From positions 1-11,182 of the forward strand of contig JASHYF010000448.1 in assembly GCA_030043235.1 (NCBI GenBank): a stretch of DNA of 11,182 bases, given 5' to 3'. The position numbers and the translations under genes were made by a program. This document shows positions 1 to 6,706 of the stretch, piece by piece. How positions within the stretch are numbered: position 1 is the stretch's first letter; each line of letters starts with the position of its first letter. Under the pieces are notes generated by a model, which was given only the letters and a program-made list of their open reading frames with translations, made no database searches and was not told the origin of the DNA. This DNA is from Solirubrobacteraceae bacterium. GTDB taxonomy: Bacteria; Actinomycetota; Thermoleophilia; Solirubrobacterales; Solirubrobacteraceae.

Positions 1-3000
1 GGTGACGATCGCCGGCGCGAACTTCGTCGGCGTCGCGGCCGTCAGGTTCGGCTCGACGGAGGCGAGCAGCTTCAGGGTGCTCTCGGAAACCGAGATCGAA
101 GCCACCTCGCCCGCGGGCGCCGGCAGCGTGGACGTGACGGTGGAAAACGCCGGCGGCACGAGCGCGACCGGCGAAGCCGACCGGTTCAGCTACCAGATGC
201 TCCCGCCGCCGACCGTCACCGGGGTGGCGCCCAGCGCCGGCCTGTCCACGGGGGCGAGCGAGGTGACGATCACGGGCGCCGACTTCGTCGGCGTGTCGGC
301 GGTCGACTTCGGCTCGACCCCGGCGACGAGCTTCGCGGTGATCTCGGAAACCGAGATCGAAGCCATCTCGCCCACGGGTACGGGCACCGTCGACGTGACC
401 GTGACCACCCCCGGCGGCACCTCTGCGACCGGCGCGTCTGACGAGTTCACCTACGAAGCCGAATCGCCTGCGGGCGCAGCAGCGTGGCTTTCGCCCGCCA
501 ACGTCGCCGAAGACGTTGCCCCGTCTGGGTTCCCGGACCCCGGCGTGGCGGTCGATCGCTACGGCGATGTGGCGGCCGTCTGGAAGGCCTGCAGCGCCAA
601 ATGCGACTCGGAAGACGAATTCGTCGAGGCGTCATTCAGACCGGCGGGTGGCAGCTGGGGCACGCCGGTCCACCTATCGGCGGCGGCTGGTGCATCTGGC
701 GCGCCCCAGATTGCCTTCGACCAGCACGGCGACGCGGTGGCCGTGTTCGCCAGCTACTCCTACCAAGGGACCAGCGAAGTTCCAGCTGAAGGCGAAGTCG
801 TGCAGGCGGCCTTCCGGCCCGCCGGCGGCAGCTGGCAGAAGCCGGTCAGCCTCTCGAGCGGGTGTGAACTGAGCGGGTGGAACGCCGAACCCCACCTCGC
901 CGTCGATCCGGCTGGCGACGCCCTCGCGAGCTGGCGCTGTCACGTGGCTGGAACCAAGCGGATCCTCGCCCAGGCCGCCTACATGCCGGCGGGCGGCAAC
1001 TGGCAGAGCCCCGTGACCCTGGCCGAAGCGATCGAGGAACATGGCGAACAAGCGCTGAGCTCGCCCAACGTCGTCATCGACTCGCACGGCGACGCGTTTG
1101 CGGGCTGGTCCCACAACGGGCTCAGCGGTGAAAGCGAGGTGGCCTACATGCCGGCGGGCGGCAGCTGGCAGGCCCCGACGGAGATCTCCGAAGACGGAGG
1201 TCCGCCCGAGCTGGCGGTCGACGGGCAGGGCGACGCTTACGCCCTCGTCGAACCGGGCGGAGGGCTCGCGATCGCCTACCGGCCCTCCGGCGGCAGCTGG
1301 CAGGCCCCAGTGGAGATCGTCCCACGGGACTCCGAAGGCGGGGGGCCCTACAGCCCCGACCTGGCGGTCGATTCGCGCGGCGACGCACTCGTGGTCTGGT
1401 GGCAGTACAAAAGCGCTTGGCAGTACATCCGGGCCGCTTACAAGCCCGCCGGCGACGGCTGGCAGGCGCCGATCACCCTGGCCGGAAAGACATGCTATGC
1501 CTTGTGGTTCTGCTCACCCGAACCACGGGTCGCCTTCGACGAAGAGGGCGACGCGGTCGCGATCTGGCAGGGCCTTGGCGCCCACGCGAGGCGCCTGCCC
1601 GCGGGCGGCGCCTGGCAGGCGCCAGTCAACATCTCCGGCGGAGAGAGCGCATCGTACTCACGCCTGGCGTTGGATCCCGACGGAAACGGAGCTGCTGTCT
1701 GGGCGTCCGAAGGCAACGGATCATGGGCGATCCAGGCAGTGGGCTACGATGCGGCTGGGCCGCAGCTCGAAGCGCTCTCGATCCCCACCGTGGGCGCCGT
1801 CGGGCAGCCGGTGTCGTTCTCGGTCTCGCCAGCCGGCGTCTGGTCGACGCTCGGCGAAACCAGGTGGACGTTCGGCGATGGCTCGTCGTCCAGCGGAACG
1901 AGCGCCGTACACACCTACACGGCTGCCGGCAGCTACGAAGTCACGGTCGAAAGCGAAGACGCGCTCGGGCGGAGGAGCCACGCCACGGGCACGATCGAGG
2001 TCGTGCCCGCGCCCCCGACGGTCAGCGCGCTCGAACCCGATCACGGCCCGCTCTCGGGCGGCACGCCGGTGATCGTCACCGGTGAACACCTGCAAGGCGC
2101 CACCGCGGTGAGCTTCGGCTCCACCAGCGCCACGAGCTTCAACGTGGAGTCGGAAACAGAGATCGAGGCCGTCTCGCCGGCCGGCGCGGGCACGGTCGAC
2201 GTCACCGTGAGCACCCCGGAAGGCGCCAGTGCCACGGACTCGGCCGACCAGTTCACATATCAGGCGGCGCCCACGGTCATCACGGGCGCCGCGTCCTCAT
2301 TCGGCCAGGCCTCGGCGACCCTGAACGCGACGGTGAACCCGGAAGGTCTGGCGGTGAGCGACTGCCACTTCGAATACGGCAGCACGCCCTCCTACGGCGC
2401 GAGCGTGCCGTGCTCCGCGCTGCCCGGGTCGGGCACCGCCCCCGTGCAGGTGTCCGCGCCGGCGAGCGGCCTGAGCCCGAACGCCACCTACTACTTCCGC
2501 ATCGTCGCGGCCAACGCGGATGGGAGCAGCTATGGCTCCGAGCAGAGGTTCGAAACGCTGCCCAACCCGCCGACGGTCGTGACGGGCGCCGCGTCGTCGC
2601 TTGGACAGAGGTCTGCCACGCTCAACGCCACCGTGAACCCCAACGAAGGGGCCGTGAGCTACTGCCGCTTCGAATACGGCCACTCGCCCCACTATGGCTC
2701 GAGCGTGCCGTGCTCCGCGCTGCCCGGGTCGGGCGCCGCCCCCGTGCCGGTGTCCGCGCCCGTGAGCGGCCTGGTCGCGTACACCACCTACTACTTCCGG
2801 ATCGTCGCGGGCAACGCGGGCGGGGCCGGCTACGGCTCTGCGCAGACGTTCGAACCCTCGCCGCAGCTGCCGGAACTCGGTAGATGCCTGAAGCTCGGCA
2901 CGGCAACCGGCAAGTACGACACCGGCGCCTGCACGACGATGAGCGCCGGCGAAGACACCGGCAGATACGAATGGCAGCCGTGGCCCGCCGCCAAGGACCG

Positions 3001-3550
3001 CTTCAGCGCCAAAGGCGGTGCGGCGACGTTTGAAACGACGGAGGCGAACAAGACGAGCGTGAAGTGCCGCGAACACGTGCTCGCCGGCGAATACACGGGC
3101 TCGCAGAGCGCCTCCGTGTCCCTCACCTTCATGGGCTGCGAAGCCTCCCTTGCTCGCGGCCCATGCCAGAGCGCAGGAGCGAGCGCCGGGGAAATCGAGT
3201 CCGGCGCGCTCGAAGGGAAGCTCGGGCTCATCGAGGCCGCGGCGAAGCCCTCGGCCGGCTGGGATCTGCGGACTGTGGCAGAAGCGCCCGTGGCCACGTT
3301 CACATGCGGCGAAGCGGCGGTATCGGTGACCGGCTCGGTCATCGCGCCCGTGACCAAGCTCGACAAGATGACAACGTCCTTCGAGCTGAACTACAAGGTC
3401 GCCAAGGGCGAGCAGAGACCCGAAGCCTTCGAAGCCGGGTGGCGGGAAACGCTCAACCTCCTCGGCGCATGGGGTACGGCACCGGCCGGTCTCACGATGA
3501 GCGACACGATCTCAGGCGAAGAACCGATCGAGATCAAAGCGATCACCTAG
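1..3550 (+). CDS. Large exported mosaic protein (IPT/TIG, propeller-like repeats, PKD, FN3-like), 5' truncated
   Basis: This is the 3' part of a large, probably secreted or surface protein. The reading frame is open from base 2 to the TAG at 3548-3550 (1182 residues), and the true start and signal peptide lie outside the window. Residues 1-64 and 68-151 are IPT/TIG domains. Residues about 160-580 hold eight repeats, each with a Trp (162, 219, 278, 334, 389, 433, 487, 538) in a PAGGSWQAPV-like strand followed by an AVDxxGDAxAVW-like strand, which suggests a beta-propeller. A PKD-like domain with WTFGDG follows at about 585-670, then a third IPT/TIG (672-755), two FN3-like units (758-853, 858-953) and a C-terminal module with six Cys (962, 977, 1022, 1046, 1055, 1102). 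No C-terminal membrane anchor or LPxTG motif is present. Such modules usually mediate adhesion or matrix contact, but the ligand cannot be inferred. Glu is mostly GAA (15 of 21 near the C-terminus), unlike the cytoplasmic genes downstream. Confidence 0.9.
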   Translation, partial: VTIAGANFVGVAAVRFGSTEASSFRVLSETEIEATSPAGAGSVDVTVENAGGTSATGEADRFSYQMLPPPTVTGVAPSAGLSTGASEVTITGADFVGVSAVDFGSTPATSFAVISETEIEAISPTGTGTVDVTVTTPGGTSATGASDEFTYEAESPAGAAAWLSPANVAEDVAPSGFPDPGVAVDRYGDVAAVWKACSAKCDSEDEFVEASFRPAGGSWGTPVHLSAAAGASGAPQIAFDQHGDAVAVFASYSYQGTSEVPAEGEVVQAAFRPAGGSWQKPVSLSSGCELSGWNAEPHLAVDPAGDALASWRCHVAGTKRILAQAAYMPAGGNWQSPVTLAEAIEEHGEQALSSPNVVIDSHGDAFAGWSHNGLSGESEVAYMPAGGSWQAPTEISEDGGPPELAVDGQGDAYALVEPGGGLAIAYRPSGGSWQAPVEIVPRDSEGGGPYSPDLAVDSRGDALVVWWQYKSAWQYIRAAYKPAGDGWQAPITLAGKTCYALWFCSPEPRVAFDEEGDAVAIWQGLGAHARRLPAGGAWQAPVNISGGESASYSRLALDPDGNGAAVWASEGNGSWAIQAVGYDAAGPQLEALSIPTVGAVGQPVSFSVSPAGVWSTLGETRWTFGDGSSSSGTSAVHTYTAAGSYEVTVESEDALGRRSHATGTIEVVPAPPTVSALEPDHGPLSGGTPVIVTGEHLQGATAVSFGSTSATSFNVESETEIEAVSPAGAGTVDVTVSTPEGASATDSADQFTYQAAPTVITGAASSFGQASATLNATVNPEGLAVSDCHFEYGSTPSYGASVPCSALPGSGTAPVQVSAPASGLSPNATYYFRIVAANADGSSYGSEQRFETLPNPPTVVTGAASSLGQRSATLNATVNPNEGAVSYCRFEYGHSPHYGSSVPCSALPGSGAAPVPVSAPVSGLVAYTTYYFRIVAGNAGGAGYGSAQTFEPSPQLPELGRCLKLGTATGKYDTGACTTMSAGEDTGRYEWQPWPAAKDRFSAKGGAATFETTEANKTSVKCREHVLAGEYTGSQSASVSLTFMGCEASLARGPCQSAGASAGEIESGALEGKLGLIEAAAKPSAGWDLRTVAEAPVATFTCGEAAVSVTGSVIAPVTKLDKMTTSFELNYKVAKGEQRPEAFEAGWRETLNLLGAWGTAPAGLTMSDTISGEEPIEIKAIT
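3..454 (+). repeat. Two tandem IPT/TIG-encoding units, 261-base period
   Basis: Two copies of an 87-codon unit lie one after the other. For example, the GGTGACGAT word at 1-9 recurs at 262-270, and TCTCGGAAACCGAGATCGAA at 81-100 recurs exactly at 342-361. A third, more diverged copy encodes the IPT/TIG domain at about 2013-2265. The copies diverge in third positions, so they are old in-frame domain duplications and not a mobile repeat. Confidence 0.8.
2281..2880 (+). repeat. Tandem 300-base duplication encoding two FN3-like domains
   Basis: Bases 2281-2580 and 2581-2880 align without gaps at a period of exactly 300 bases (100 codons). The best conserved part is 2401-2460 against 2701-2760, with 58 of 60 bases identical, while the flanks are much more diverged. 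Each unit encodes an FN3-like module with FEYG, VPCSALPGSG and TTYYFRIV or ATYYFRIV motifs. The uneven identity suggests local gene conversion or strong constraint on the central stretch. Confidence 0.85.
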
Positions 3551-3718: not shown

Positions 3719-3749
3719 TTGCGGGCGTTGGTAGCAGTTCTGCTACCCT
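3719..3749 (+). promoter_or_regulatory. Putative toxin-antitoxin promoter, probably leaderless
   Basis: A TTGCGG hexamer (3719-3724) could serve as -35 and TACCCT (3744-3749, matching TAnnnT) as -10, with a longish 19-base spacer. Only eight bases separate the -10 from the antitoxin ATG at 3758, and there is no Shine-Dalgarno sequence. Transcription would therefore start at or a few bases before the ATG, giving a leaderless mRNA as is common in actinobacteria. The -10 overlaps the palindromic operator. This is a prediction from motif and spacing only. Confidence 0.45.
3730..3747 (+). promoter_or_regulatory. Perfect palindromic operator of the toxin-antitoxin module
   Basis: The sequence GGTAGCAGTTCTGCTACC is a perfect inverted repeat with 8-base arms and a 2-base centre. 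It ends 10 bases before the antitoxin ATG and covers the predicted -10. Position and symmetry are those expected for the binding site of a dimeric Phd/VapB-type antitoxin, which represses its own operon and does so better with toxin bound. The dyad is seen directly; the binding protein is inferred. Confidence 0.7.
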
Positions 3750-3757
3750 GTGCTCGT

Positions 3758-4000
3758 ATGGCGACGATACCGCAGAAGGAGCTCCGAAACCACGTAAGTC
3801 GGGTACTGCGGCGCGCGGAGGCGGGCGAGGAGATCACGATCACGGTTGCCGGGAGGCCGGTCGCACAGCTCGGGCCGACAGGGCGGCGGCGTTGGGTCAG
3901 CGGTCCGGCGCTGCGCGCGGTCTGGCGTACCCCGGCTCCCGTCACGCCTGCTGCGGATATCGAGCAGTTCCCGGCCTCGCTGACGGACCCCTTCGCATAG
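3758..4000 (+). CDS. Type II antitoxin, Phd/VapB-like (80 aa)
   Basis: This is probably the antitoxin that neutralises the PIN toxin encoded 6 bases downstream and represses the shared promoter. Residues 1-40 match the Phd/YefM-type N-terminal DNA-binding and dimer region, with the pattern IPQKELRNHVSxVLRRAExGEEITITVxGRPVAQL. Residues 45-80 form the variable tail that usually wraps around the toxin and end in LTDPFA. The ATG at 3758 is preferred over an upstream in-frame TTG at 3719, because the family match begins at MATIPQKE and the upstream bases hold the promoter and palindrome. No ribosome binding site precedes the ATG, which agrees with a leaderless transcript. The family call is from remembered patterns; Phd versus VapB naming is uncertain. 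Confidence 0.88.
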   Translation: MATIPQKELRNHVSRVLRRAEAGEEITITVAGRPVAQLGPTGRRRWVSGPALRAVWRTPAPVTPAADIEQFPASLTDPFA

Positions 4001-4006
4001 CTCTGG

Positions 4007-4462
4007 ATGCGTGCACTGCTCGATACCTCCGTGCTCATAGGGGAGGAGCCGCCTCCTGACGTCGAGGCTGCGATCAGTGTCGCCTCGCTCGCCGAGCTTC
4101 ACTTCGGTGTGCTCGTCGCCGTCGACGACGACGAGCGTGCGGTTCGCACTCAGCGTCTCGGCGCGATCGAGTCGGCGTTCGATGCGCTGCCGATCAGCGC
4201 CGCCATCGCCCGCGAGTGGGGTCGCCTGGCCGCTGCCGTGAGCAACCGAGGCGGTCAACCCCGCAGGAGAGCGATCGACCTGGCGCTGGCCGCCACTGCA
4301 AACGTGCACGGCGTACCACTGCTCACCCACGACACCGGCGACTTCCAGATCATCAGCGATCTCACCGACGCCCGCGAGCCTTCCGCCTCGCAGCCGGCCG
4401 AGTCCGAACCGGCTGCAGGCTCCAGGTCCGAGGAGGAGCAAGCGGAACCGCCGGCCGCATAG
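4007..4462 (+). CDS. vapC: VapC-type PIN-domain ribonuclease toxin (151 aa)
   Basis: This is the predicted toxin of the module, a metal-dependent ribonuclease; family members cut tRNA, rRNA or mRNA. The PIN fold spans residues 1-120. The expected acidic residues are all present: D6 in LLDTSVLI, E30 in SLAELHFG, D91 in AIDLALAATA, and D112 in the THDTGDF motif, where D109 replaces the usual Asn. The ATG lies 6 bases after the antitoxin stop with no clear ribosome binding site, so translation is probably coupled. Residues 123-151 form a low-complexity Glu/Pro/Ala/Ser tail that most VapC proteins of about 130 residues lack. The active site looks intact. The RNA target cannot be read from the sequence. 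Confidence 0.9.
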   Translation: MRALLDTSVLIGEEPPPDVEAAISVASLAELHFGVLVAVDDDERAVRTQRLGAIESAFDALPISAAIAREWGRLAAAVSNRGGQPRRRAIDLALAATANVHGVPLLTHDTGDFQIISDLTDAREPSASQPAESEPAAGSRSEEEQAEPPAA

Positions 4463-4710: not shown

Positions 4711-6048
4711 TCAGGCCGACAGCGCGAACAGCGGCCAGTGGCCGGGAACGCCTTTGAGCTCGTGCAGGCCGCGGTCCGTGAACGCGAACGGACCGCCCAC
4801 GACCGTCCCGAACACCGTGCCAGAGACGAGCACCTCGCCCGCGCTCGCCAGCGCGCTCACGCGGGCGGCGATGTGGACGGCCATGCCGCCCACGTCCTCG
4901 CCGATCAGCTCGCACTCGCCCGTGTGCATGCCGACGCGCACCTCCACGCCCAGCTCGTGCGCGGCGCGCGTGATCGCCAGCGCGCAGCGCAGCGCGCGCG
5001 AGGGGGGCCCCTCGAAGGTCGCGAGGAAGCCGTCGCCCACGGTCTTCACCTCGCGCCCGCCGAAGCGGGCGAGCTCGGCGCGCACGTGCTCGTCGTGGCG
5101 GGCGATCAGGTCGCGCCAGCGGCCGTCGCCCAGCCTCGCCGCGTGCGCGGTGGCGTCGACGATGTCGGTGAACATCACGGTCAGCAACGTGCGCGCCGGC
5201 CCGCCGCTGCCGCGCCGGCCGGTGAGGAACACCTCGATCTCCTCGAGGATCCCCTCGCTGTCGCCGAGGAAGGGGAAGGAGTCGCTCCCCTCCAGCTCCA
5301 CGTAGCGGGCGCCGGCGATGCGCTCGGCGAGATAGCGCGAATGACGCACGTCCCAGCCGCCTTCGCCCGCGCGGTGCATCACCAGCGTGGGCACGCGCAC
5401 GCGCTCGAGCGCCTCGCGCACGTCGAGGTCGTTCGCCGCCTGCAGCACCGCGCGCGCCTCACCGGGGCTTGCGGCGAGGCGCTGCATGCGCGCCAGCCAG
5501 CCCGCCAGCGTGGGGTCGTCCGCCATCGAGGGCGCCAGCGTTCTCAGCCCTTCGTTGTCCAGCTCGCCCCAGCCGCGGACGTTTCGCTCCACCAGCGCCT
5601 CGCGCTCCGCGACGGTCAGCGCCCAGTCGTAGTCCGGCGCCCACGCCGTGCGCGCGATCGACGCGTACATCACCAGCGCCCCCACCCGCTGCGGATGCTC
5701 GGCCGCGAGCAGGATCCCCACGAGCCCGCCGAGCAGGTAGGTGAACAGCGCGGCGCGTTCGCTGCCGGCGGCATCGAGCACGGCGAGCGCATCGCGCACC
5801 TCCTGCTCCAGCGAGTGCGATCCGACAATGCGGTCGGACAGCCCCGTGCCGCGGCGGTCGAACAGGATCAGGCGCCCGAAGCCCGCGAGGCGCTCCAGGA
5901 AGCGCCGCAGCGCGGGCAGCTCCCACAGCTGCTCGATCTGCGAGATCCAGCCCGGGAGGAACAGCACATCGAGCGGCCCCTCGCCGACGACCTGGTAGGC
6001 GATGGTGGCGCCGTCGCTGTGCGTGTAGCGCGTGCTGGGAGCAGTCAT
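4711..6048 (-). CDS. Alpha/beta-hydrolase-like domain fused to class III adenylate/guanylate cyclase (445 aa)
   Basis: The C-terminal domain (residues about 285-445) is a class III nucleotide cyclase, which makes cAMP or cGMP from ATP or GTP. It has both metal-binding aspartates (D295 in FTDIV, D339 in VGDGF), a Lys at the base-selecting position (K335) and D385 in IGEDVGG. The transition-state Asn is replaced by His (H392, in VHIAAR) while R396 is kept. Residues 1-278 form an alpha/beta-hydrolase fold with DRRGTGLSD (64-72) and HPQRV, but the nucleophile elbow reads TYLLGG, so L105 replaces Ser. The catalytic His position is S257 (GSDSFPF) and the acid position looks like E229. The hydrolase part is therefore probably inactive and may sense a ligand. 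The architecture resembles mycobacterial Rv1900c. The ATG at 6048 is chosen because it overlaps the stop of the upstream NYN gene (ATGA); an in-frame start at 6126 would lie inside that gene. No membrane segment is seen. Confidence 0.92.
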   Translation of the reverse strand: MTAPSTRYTHSDGATIAYQVVGEGPLDVLFLPGWISQIEQLWELPALRRFLERLAGFGRLILFDRRGTGLSDRIVGSHSLEQEVRDALAVLDAAGSERAALFTYLLGGLVGILLAAEHPQRVGALVMYASIARTAWAPDYDWALTVAEREALVERNVRGWGELDNEGLRTLAPSMADDPTLAGWLARMQRLAASPGEARAVLQAANDLDVREALERVRVPTLVMHRAGEGGWDVRHSRYLAERIAGARYVELEGSDSFPFLGDSEGILEEIEVFLTGRRGSGGPARTLLTVMFTDIVDATAHAARLGDGRWRDLIARHDEHVRAELARFGGREVKTVGDGFLATFEGPPSRALRCALAITRAAHELGVEVRVGMHTGECELIGEDVGGMAVHIAARVSALASAGEVLVSGTVFGTVVGGPFAFTDRGLHELKGVPGHWPLFALSA

Positions 6049-6419
6049 GCGTCTTCGATCAGCGCACGAAAGGGCGCGGAGGGCTCGACGGTGGCGCCCG
6101 CCGCGTGCACCCGGTCGGACAGCCACGAGTCGGAGGTGACCACGCGCACCGAGCCTGGCTGCTCCTCCACGGTGAGCAGGCGAACGATCTCATCGTCGGC
6201 CGAGTCCCGGCGCGGACGGGGCGCGTACGCGACGGCGATGACCGTCGAGCGGATCGGCGGCGAGGGGGGCTGCTCGAACACGACCGTCACCTCCGCGCCG
6301 CTGCTCGCGGCCCAGCGCTCGAGCAGGCCCACCAGCTTGACCATCGCCGCGTGCCTGTCCTTCCACCACGCGTCCGGCCGCGTGCCGATCACGTTCATGC
6401 CATCCACGAGCCAGCGCAC
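6045..6419 (-). CDS. NYN-domain (YacP/Rae1-like) putative ribonuclease (124 aa)
   Basis: This is a small NYN-domain protein with a PIN-like nuclease fold, related to YacP; the Bacillus member Rae1 is a ribosome-associated mRNA endonuclease. The sequence starts with the signature WLVDGMNVIG (D6, N9), continues with WWKDRHAAM (18-26), TVVFE (45-49), the acidic patch DSADDEIVRLL (72-82) and ends the core with VVTSDSWLSDRV (D97, D102). These acidic residues are at the places expected for the metal site. The GTG at 6419 is chosen because the fold begins directly after it; an upstream TTG at 6464 would overlap the divergent gene. No Shine-Dalgarno is visible, but a TACGCT -10-like box ends 7 bases upstream, so the message may be leaderless. 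Its stop overlaps the cyclase start by 4 bases, indicating an operon. The substrate is unknown. Confidence 0.85.
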   Translation of the reverse strand: MRWLVDGMNVIGTRPDAWWKDRHAAMVKLVGLLERWAASSGAEVTVVFEQPPSPPIRSTVIAVAYAPRPRRDSADDEIVRLLTVEEQPGSVRVVTSDSWLSDRVHAAGATVEPSAPFRALIEDA

Positions 6420-6463
6420 CGCGCCAAGCGTAGACGCGTTTCGTGCTGGAGTTCTCGCCAGCA
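6420..6463. promoter_or_regulatory. Divergent promoter region for the NYN-cyclase pair and the GT operon
   Basis: Only 44 bases separate two divergent starts, so both promoters must lie here or within the opposing genes. On the minus strand TACGCT (6432 to 6427) fits a TAnnnT -10 box 7 bases before the GTG at 6419; no good -35 was found. On the plus strand GGAG (6448-6451) could act as a rather distant ribosome binding site for the ATG at 6464. I could not assign a plus-strand promoter. Confidence 0.3.
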
Positions 6464-6706
6464 ATGCGTCTCGAGGGCATCAACGCCGGCGACATCGTCG
6501 AGGTCGACCGCAAGGGCAGGCGCTTCCATGCCGTGGTCACCGGCACGGTGCCCGGCGGGCTGGCGATCCAGCCCACCGACCGGCGCGTCAACTTCTACTC
6601 CTGCCGCAGTCGCGAGGTCATCGGCCACTGGGCCAAGCGCGGGCGGCCGCGTCAGACGAGCGAGCCGCTGCGCCCGTCGCCGCGCCAACTGCAGATCGAT
6701 CTATAG
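6464..6706 (+). CDS. Small conserved-looking hypothetical protein, possible SH3-like barrel (80 aa)
   Basis: I do not recognise this as a named family. The protein is short and basic. Residues 3-60 read like a small beta barrel: GDIVEVDRKGRRFHAVVTG, then a GGLAIQP turn, RRVNFYSC, and REVIGHWAKRGRP. The start GDIVEV and regular strand pattern suggest an SH3- or KOW-like fold, and the basic tail (KRGRPRQ) could bind nucleic acid. There is no signal peptide or membrane segment. The ATG at 6464 is preferred; an in-frame GTG at 6443 would add seven residues. The gene ends 12 bases before the glycosyltransferase start, so the two are probably co-transcribed. It is divergent from the NYN gene. Function is unknown, but coding status is supported by clean spacing and coherent protein features. 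Confidence 0.7.
   Translation: MRLEGINAGDIVEVDRKGRRFHAVVTGTVPGGLAIQPTDRRVNFYSCRSREVIGHWAKRGRPRQTSEPLRPSPRQLQIDL

What the first reader, a model, noticed from the sequence alone, without database searches (positions are those of the whole stretch)
4711..6048. Hydrolase-cyclase fusion whose hydrolase triad is lost at all three positions
The nucleophile elbow reads TYLLGG instead of the usual GxSxGG (Ser to Leu105; the codon was checked on the minus strand). The His position is Ser257 in GSDSFPF, and the acid position appears to be Glu229. The fold motifs (DRRGTGLSD, HPQRV, the RYLAERI helix) are kept while catalysis is not. Conserved fold with a lost triad, fused to a cyclase that keeps both metal aspartates, suggests that the hydrolase domain was turned into a ligand-sensing pseudoenzyme that controls cNMP production.
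Basis: partly seen in the sequence, partly recalled or inferred. Interest (0 to 1): 0.7.

Follow-up and report, generated by a model that had tools for sequence, protein, structure and literature searches.

The report
Dead hydrolase fused to cAMP-making enzyme
A bacterium's predicted cAMP-making enzyme carries a hydrolase-like front half that has lost two of its three catalytic residues while its old active-site region stays tightly conserved, which suggests that the dead enzyme now works as a sensor.

Summary
The gene is real: a 445-residue alpha/beta-hydrolase plus class III cyclase fusion (4711-6048, minus strand), nearest to Solirubrobacteraceae proteins. Ser-to-Leu105 and His-to-Ser257 are confirmed. 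Glu229 is not a lost acid: the position is acidic in 120 of 120 nearest sequences, and Glu occurs in 10 of 82 relatives keeping Ser and His. Two of three triad residues are lost.

This is a clade rule: His257 occurs in 0 of 120 and Ser105 in 14. On the best tree of 168 fusion proteins, His257 needs at least 13 changes and Ser105 at least 21. Four proteins over NCBI's 'lipase/adenylate cyclase LipJ' cut-off also lack the triad. Cyclase metal aspartates are kept.

The five most clade-specific hydrolase positions (Y104, D233, H236, S237, S257) lie in the former catalytic loops, though H236 and D233 recur in triad-keeping LuxR fusions of the same module (122 of 123 intact). Best reading: a pseudo-hydrolase input domain that probably binds a ligand and tunes cAMP synthesis. 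Loss of the classical triad is well supported; ligand control is inferred. New variant of a known kind.

The parts
4711..6048 (-). hydrolase-cyclase fusion gene, 445 aa (P0001)
   Evidence: full-length relatives of 74-88% identity
5215..6042 (-). alpha/beta-hydrolase domain, residues 3-278
5734..5736 (-). nucleophile position: CTG, Leu105 instead of Ser
   Evidence: variable in the clade
5362..5364 (-). acid position: GAA, Glu229 (acidic residue kept)
   Evidence: E110/D10 of 120
5278..5280 (-). His position: TCC, Ser257
   Evidence: S119/N1 of 120
5341..5352 (-). D233-V-R-H236, conserved motif at the start of the helix after the acid loop
   Evidence: H236 and D233 in 100% of 41 clade reps against 4% and 10% of 72 cyclase-fusion reps that keep Ser and His; but also common in triad-keeping LuxR fusions
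5737..5739 (-). Tyr104, invariant residue before the lost nucleophile
   Evidence: 120 of 120; 93% against 10%
4720..5190 (-). class III nucleotide cyclase domain, residues 287-443
   Evidence: PF00211; 57% identity, 1.0 A over 161 residues to Rv1900c cyclase domain 1ybu
5164..5166 (-). metal-binding Asp295
   Evidence: 120 of 120
5032..5034 (-). metal-binding Asp339
   Evidence: 120 of 120
6045..6464 (-). upstream YacP-like NYN-domain gene whose stop overlaps the fusion's start (ATGA); conserved neighbour
   Evidence: PF05991; overlap; neighbour in 10 of 11 clade loci and found in 0 of 125 other loci

Best explanation
The protein is a one-component cAMP signalling enzyme. The N-terminal half is a catalytically dead alpha/beta-hydrolase that serves as the input domain. 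The C-terminal half is an active class IIIc-type adenylyl cyclase that works as a homodimer, as Rv1900c does. The former active-site cleft is kept as a binding site with a conserved set of residues (Tyr104, Asp233, Arg235, His236, Ser237, Asp256-Ser257), while the old nucleophile position is free to vary. A small molecule, or possibly a partner protein, binds there and changes how the two cyclase halves pair, so setting the cAMP output. Shown by sequence: loss of nucleophile and His, kept acid, kept fold motifs, kept cyclase metals, clade-wide conservation of the residues named, purifying selection, and the same module fused to another output domain. Inferred: absence of hydrolysis, ligand binding, control of the cyclase, dimer, and cAMP as the product.
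For: Ser/His loss across the clade: 120 of 120 rows lack His257 and 106 of 120 lack Ser105. Ordinary hydrolases in six related genomes keep a Ser or Asp nucleophile in 25 of 25 readable and His in 16 of 16 readable (27 of 30 aligned). The top five clade-specific sites of 276 all fall within 8 residues of a triad position (hypergeometric p 1.8e-4; of the top 12, 6 do, p 0.011; the width of 8 was chosen after seeing the sites). Columns 104-107, 228-230, 235-237 and 256-258 were left out of the tree that defined the clade. Hydrolase half under purifying selection, mean pN/pS 0.41. Cyclase D295, D339, K335, D385, R396 invariant in 120 of 120. The module also occurs with a LuxR HTH: 5 of the 8 loci fetched because little but their hydrolase part had matched, and each of the 120 listed relatives of one of them carries PF00196 with PF00561. 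VIA-align rows include the hydrolase-fold receptors D14 and KAI2-like E, and RsbQ. Homodimer and class IIIc are reported for Rv1900c (passages of PMC3938503, and PMC10837130).
Against: No ligand, binding or activity data. The hydrolase half evolves faster than the cyclase half (74.6% against 86.0% mean identity to P0001), which relaxed constraint would also give. H236 is 122 of 123 and D233 is 96 of 123 in LuxR fusions that keep the triad, so these two are not marks of triad loss as such; of the top five only S237 (5 of 123 there), S257 and Y104 (none there) are not shared with them. In the phylum-wide sample H236 stands in only 14 of 37 proteins without His257.
Confidence: 0.58

Rival explanations
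1. The hydrolase half is only a scaffold (stability, dimerisation, partner docking). It binds no ligand, and the old active site decays because nothing selects for it.
For: Position 105 is the 24th most variable of 276 hydrolase sites in the clade. The hydrolase half has higher pN/pS than the cyclase half (0.41 against 0.25). Loss is recurrent across the family (at least 13 changes at 257 and 21 at 105 on the best tree).
Against: Decay predicts variation at all former active-site positions. Instead Y104, H236 and D256 are invariant and S257 and D233 are 119 of 120, and the strongest clade-specific sites cluster there.
Confidence: 0.22
2. Catalysis was moved, not lost: H236 with D233 or E229 and another nucleophile (S257, Y104 or a water) carries out hydrolysis or another reaction.
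For: Among 216 proteins H236 stands in 100 of 124 without His257 and in 6 of 92 with it. A correlated-evolution model on the tree gives LR 10.5, p 0.033. S257 and D233 are nearly invariant in the 120.
Against: H236 is present in 122 of 123 LuxR fusions, which have Ser105 and His257 in 123 of 123, so it is no substitute. In the phylum-wide sample H236 is in 14 of 37 without His257 and 5 of 52 with it. Independent-pair counts give no support (3 starred pairs, median p 1). Position 257 is Asn, Thr, Gly, Arg, Ala or Asp in other members of the 57-row clade that keep H236.
Confidence: 0.12
3. It is a working bifunctional lipase/adenylyl cyclase, as the nearest NCBIfam name says.
For: Best NCBIfam match is 'bifunctional lipase/adenylate cyclase LipJ', 472 bits.
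Against: Below that model's cut-off of 800. Four proteins above the cut-off themselves read S/S/V, N/S/V, N/A/V and G/P/A at nucleophile/acid/His.
Confidence: 0.04
4. Frameshift, assembly error or pseudogene.
For: The genome is a 475-contig assembly at 59% completeness.
Against: Open full-length frame; 119 database relatives, 118 with Ser257 and one with Asn; low pN/pS.
Confidence: 0.01

Closest known systems
LipJ (Rv1900c type) hydrolase-cyclase fusions of Mycobacterium, NCBIfam NF058673
   Same: Same domain order and length; best NCBIfam hit; cyclase 57% identical to the Rv1900c cyclase structure; His in place of the usual Asn (H392), as reported for Rv1900c (PMC4886424 passage); four proteins over the model's cut-off also lack the triad.
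   Different: 472 bits against a cut-off of 800. Separate clade on the tree. Different residues at the old site: this clade Y-x-x-G ... D-x-R-H-S ... D-S; most of the mycobacterial rows P-G/S-F ... P-x-E/G-H ... D-A/T/V. K335 here, Asn in L090 and L091. Rv1900c itself was not fetched.
Hydrolase-LuxR (GerE) fusions
   Same: Homologous hydrolase domain (38-44% identical to P0001 in the alignment) in front of a signalling output.
   Different: DNA-binding output; triad kept in 122 of 123.
Plant D14/KAI2 hydrolase-fold receptors and bacterial RsbQ
   Different: They keep the triad (recalled); no cyclase; only a structural analogy, about 15-20% identity.
Alpha/beta-hydrolase pseudoenzymes such as GID1, ABHD5 and NDRG (recalled)
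   Same: Hydrolase fold that lost catalytic residues and gained a regulatory role (recalled).
   Different: Eukaryotic, stand-alone proteins; no comparison was run here.

Membership tests
Pfam PF00561 alpha/beta hydrolase fold | score above the gathering cut-off | tested here: met
   33.6 bits against 25.8
Active serine alpha/beta-hydrolase (esterase/lipase) | nucleophile (Ser, Cys or Asp) at the elbow | tested here: not met
   Leu105
Active serine alpha/beta-hydrolase (esterase/lipase) | catalytic His after strand 8 | tested here: not met
   Ser257; His in 0 of 120 clade rows
Active serine alpha/beta-hydrolase (esterase/lipase) | acid after strand 7 | tested here: met
   Glu229; D/E in 120 of 120
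Class III nucleotide cyclase (PF00211) | score above the cut-off and both metal Asp | tested here: met
   48 bits against 21.9; D295 and D339 invariant
Class III nucleotide cyclase (PF00211) | makes cAMP from ATP | not testable with these tools
   K335 and D385 align with a Lys and an Asp of Ma1120; that these specify ATP is recalled, and PDB titles name a KDA-to-EGY mutant of Ma1120
NCBIfam NF058673 LipJ equivalog | score at or above 800 bits | tested here: not met
   472 bits
D14/KAI2/RsbQ-type receptor | same fold | tested here: met
D14/KAI2/RsbQ-type receptor | binds a signal molecule and passes it to a partner | not testable with these tools
   no binding data

The most novel reading that the evidence does not exclude
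LipJ-type cyclases are a large bacterial class of one-component receptors built on alpha/beta-hydrolases. Hydrolysis was dropped many times in the cyclase-linked branch, first the Ser and then the His, while the LuxR-linked branch kept it. In the Solirubrobacteraceae clade the emptied catalytic centre was rebuilt into a dedicated ligand site that controls cAMP, with the old nucleophile position now tuning specificity. The name 'lipase' on LipJ would then be wrong for the whole equivalog family.
Probability: 0.35. Interest if true: 0.68.

Novelty: new variant of a known kind. Interest (0 to 1): 0.5.

Why it matters
Bacteria, mycobacteria above all, carry many class III cyclases whose input signals are largely unknown (recalled). 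If a dead hydrolase is the receptor, its kept site tells where to look for the ligand, and the two paralogues in the same genome that keep Ser and His (L002, L003) give natural enzyme controls. It also warns that proteins named 'bifunctional lipase/adenylate cyclase' may not be lipases. Two outputs, cyclase and LuxR, on one hydrolase module give a handle on how an enzyme becomes a sensor.

Tried and rejected
H236 as replacement for the lost catalytic His: striking in raw counts of the P0001-centred set, weaker in the phylum-wide sample (14 of 37 against 5 of 52), weak once the tree is used, and contradicted by the LuxR fusions, where H236 and the full triad occur together.

Mutual information inside the 120 rows put position 106 with 65, 36, 38, 35 and 32, and position 105 with 44, 202, 231 and others. 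This could mean pocket co-adaptation, but 120 related rows do not separate it from shared ancestry, so I do not use it.

Pocket geometry: the model (mean pLDDT 86.6, pTM 0.63) came without coordinates, so distances and cavity were not measured. The pTM leaves the placement of the two domains unsettled. A hydrolase-only tree with LuxR fusions put P0001 in no starred set, and its deepest branches are weak.

Literature: Sinha et al. 2005 on Rv1900c is not held. Of Shenoy et al. 2004 (PMC2447327) the held text is the abstract and references; I saw the abstract and one passage of the references. Search counts show Rv1900c 11 times and 'catalytic triad' once in its full text, so it may already discuss the triad. 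Of PMC4886424, PMC10837130, PMC3938503 and PMC10865251 I saw passages only. The rows listed by searches (some of them capped lists) hold no paper that by title or abstract start describes triad loss in these fusions; that is no proof that none exists.

Rfam: no match in the window at gathering thresholds.

Sampling limits: the genome searches list and fetch the best matches to P0001, scored at most 5 candidates a genome, and so lean towards its kin. The 335-row set may hold some proteins twice (database proteins and loci of the same organism were not compared with each other); counts given as 'of 216' leave out the 119 database proteins. In the census 101 of the matches were used, 12 of them dropped as unreadable at 105 or 257; eight held loci (L330-L337) were left out, and four listed partial matches (G157:C54, G387:C645, G146:C4, G504:C94) were not fetched. 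In control, loci L261, L271 and L274 gave no alignment and were dropped; its profile was built from fusions that keep Ser and His, its loci are the best Pfam scorers, which favours intact triads, and I did not check each for fused domains. The LuxR set is narrow (71-95% identity to L331), so its contrast with the broad cyclase set is uneven.

Full report

CHECKING THE TRIAD. Codons 105, 229 and 257 read Leu, Glu and Ser. Among P0001 and its 119 nearest database proteins (the only ones listed of 7,997 scored; 74-88% identity), column 105 is L46 A31 Q24 S14 G3 T1 M1, column 257 is S119 N1, and column 229 is E110 D10. Loss of the His is therefore a clade rule, loss of the nucleophile holds for 106 of 120, and the acid is kept. 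Two paralogues in the same genome, L002 and L003 (49% and 46% identity), keep Ser105 and His257 with Glu and Asp at 229. PF00561 loci of six related genomes keep a Ser or Asp nucleophile in 25 of 25 readable and His in 16 of 16 readable cases (27 of 30 loci aligned).

HOW FAR THE LOSS REACHES. In 335 aligned fusion proteins (some perhaps present twice) Ser105 with His257 occurs in 82; without the 119 database proteins this is 82 of 216. In a phylum-wide sample drawn evenly by genome, 101 held matches gave 89 readable: 33 keep both, 4 Ser only, 19 His only, 33 neither, with both metal Asp in 87 and Asp/Glu in 2. On a tree of 168 representatives, built without the triad columns and their neighbours, P0001 lies in starred clades of 20 and 41 rows and in a 57-row clade (support 93, not starred); no row of these has His257. 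The mycobacterial LipJ rows lie in a separate starred clade of 10 rows (with L162 and L209), also without His257. On this best tree, in which 63 of 165 inner branches are open, His257 needs at least 13 changes and Ser105 at least 21. A two-trait model strongly prefers dependence between Ser105 and His257 (LR 57.8, p 8.5e-12), with His lost at rate zero while Ser is present. This suggests that Ser goes first, though fitted rates of this kind are rough.

LIPJ NAMING. The name 'lipase' is thus not backed by the residues in these four. Rv1900c itself was not examined. PMC10865251 lists it among Lip enzymes with a reference to Kumari and Kaur 2021, which I did not see (passage).

WHAT REPLACED THE TRIAD. 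Comparing 41 clade representatives with 72 cyclase fusions that keep Ser and His over 276 hydrolase sites, the five largest differences are H236 (100% against 4%), D233 (100% against 10%), S237 (93% against 7%), S257 (85% against 0%) and Y104 (93% against 10%). All lie within 8 residues of a triad position (p 1.8e-4; the width was set after seeing them). Position 105 itself is among the most variable (24th of 276). The domain as a whole is under purifying selection, weaker than the cyclase half (mean pN/pS 0.41 against 0.25 in 10 pairs). This pattern fits a repurposed site better than plain decay.

AGAINST A MOVED ACTIVE SITE. H236 goes with loss of His257 in raw counts of the P0001-centred set (100 of 124 against 6 of 92), less in the phylum-wide sample (14 of 37 against 5 of 52), only weakly once descent is modelled (p 0.033) and not at all by independent pairs. 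In LuxR fusions H236 is present in 122 of 123 together with Ser105 (123 of 123) and His257 (123 of 123). So H236 is a feature of some branches, not a stand-in for the catalytic His. This also weakens the 'new site' argument, since D233 (96 of 123) and H236 are shared with triad-keeping LuxR fusions.

AN EXCHANGEABLE INPUT MODULE. Eight loci were fetched because the search row covered little but the hydrolase. Five (L331-L334, L337) are hydrolase plus LuxR-type HTH (GerE); L330 and L335 run on into a cyclase and L336 has no readable cyclase in frame. Each of the 120 listed relatives of L331 carries GerE with an abhydrolase domain. The triad is intact in 122 of 123 such proteins (120 database proteins and three loci); this set is narrow (71-95% identity to L331). 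One hydrolase family thus feeds two kinds of signalling output, which supports a sensing role for the domain.

NEIGHBOURHOOD. The upstream YacP-like NYN gene (6045-6464) ends in the ATGA that starts the fusion, a sign of translational coupling. This gene lies upstream in 10 of 11 clade loci (not found at L022/L178) and was found in 0 of 125 other distinct fusion loci, whose flanks reach up to 1.5 or 3 kb and are in part cut by contig ends. Homologues of the window's GT4 glycosyltransferase lie nearby in 7 of 11 clade loci, and of its acyl-CoA synthetase in the window and 5 others; the remaining flanks are in part too short. YacP/Rae1 relatives are RNases (recalled), so a link to RNA turnover is possible but untested.

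CYCLASE. D295, D339, K335, D385 and R396 are invariant in 120 of 120, and H392 is in 119. His at this place is also reported for Rv1900c (PMC4886424 passage). I expect adenylyl cyclase activity, by inference.

VERDICT. Real, partly misdescribed (acid kept), and wider than reported. The sensor reading is plausible and testable but unproven. The architecture is known; the clade-wide dead hydrolase with a conserved old site is a new variant of it as far as the searches could show.

Noticed in passing
L051, L053, L054, L060 and others; columns 335 and 385 of P0001: In 38 of 272 related sequences (a few without a readable cyclase) the cyclase's K335/D385 pair is swapped to Asp/Lys, and others carry Asp with Arg, Gly or Asn. 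A charge swap of the pair thought to read the base may mean a different substrate or a mirrored way of reading ATP.
   Followed up: partly
L331:400-1440, L332, L333, L334, L337: Alpha/beta-hydrolase domains of this family fused to LuxR-type HTH domains, with the triad intact in 122 of 123 such proteins.
   Followed up: yes
6045-6464: YacP-like NYN gene overlapping the fusion's start codon and kept next to it in 10 of 11 clade loci.
   Followed up: partly
3719-4462: A small ORF that looks Phd/VapB-like by eye, followed by a PIN-domain (VapC-like) ORF: a probable toxin-antitoxin pair (PIN hit; ORFs).
   Followed up: no
2-3550: Long ORF with TIG and PKD domains, probably a secreted or surface protein, reaching the window edge.
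   Followed up: no
L090, L222, L197, L202: Proteins above the NCBIfam LipJ 'lipase' cut-off that lack the catalytic triad: a likely misleading family name.
   Followed up: partly
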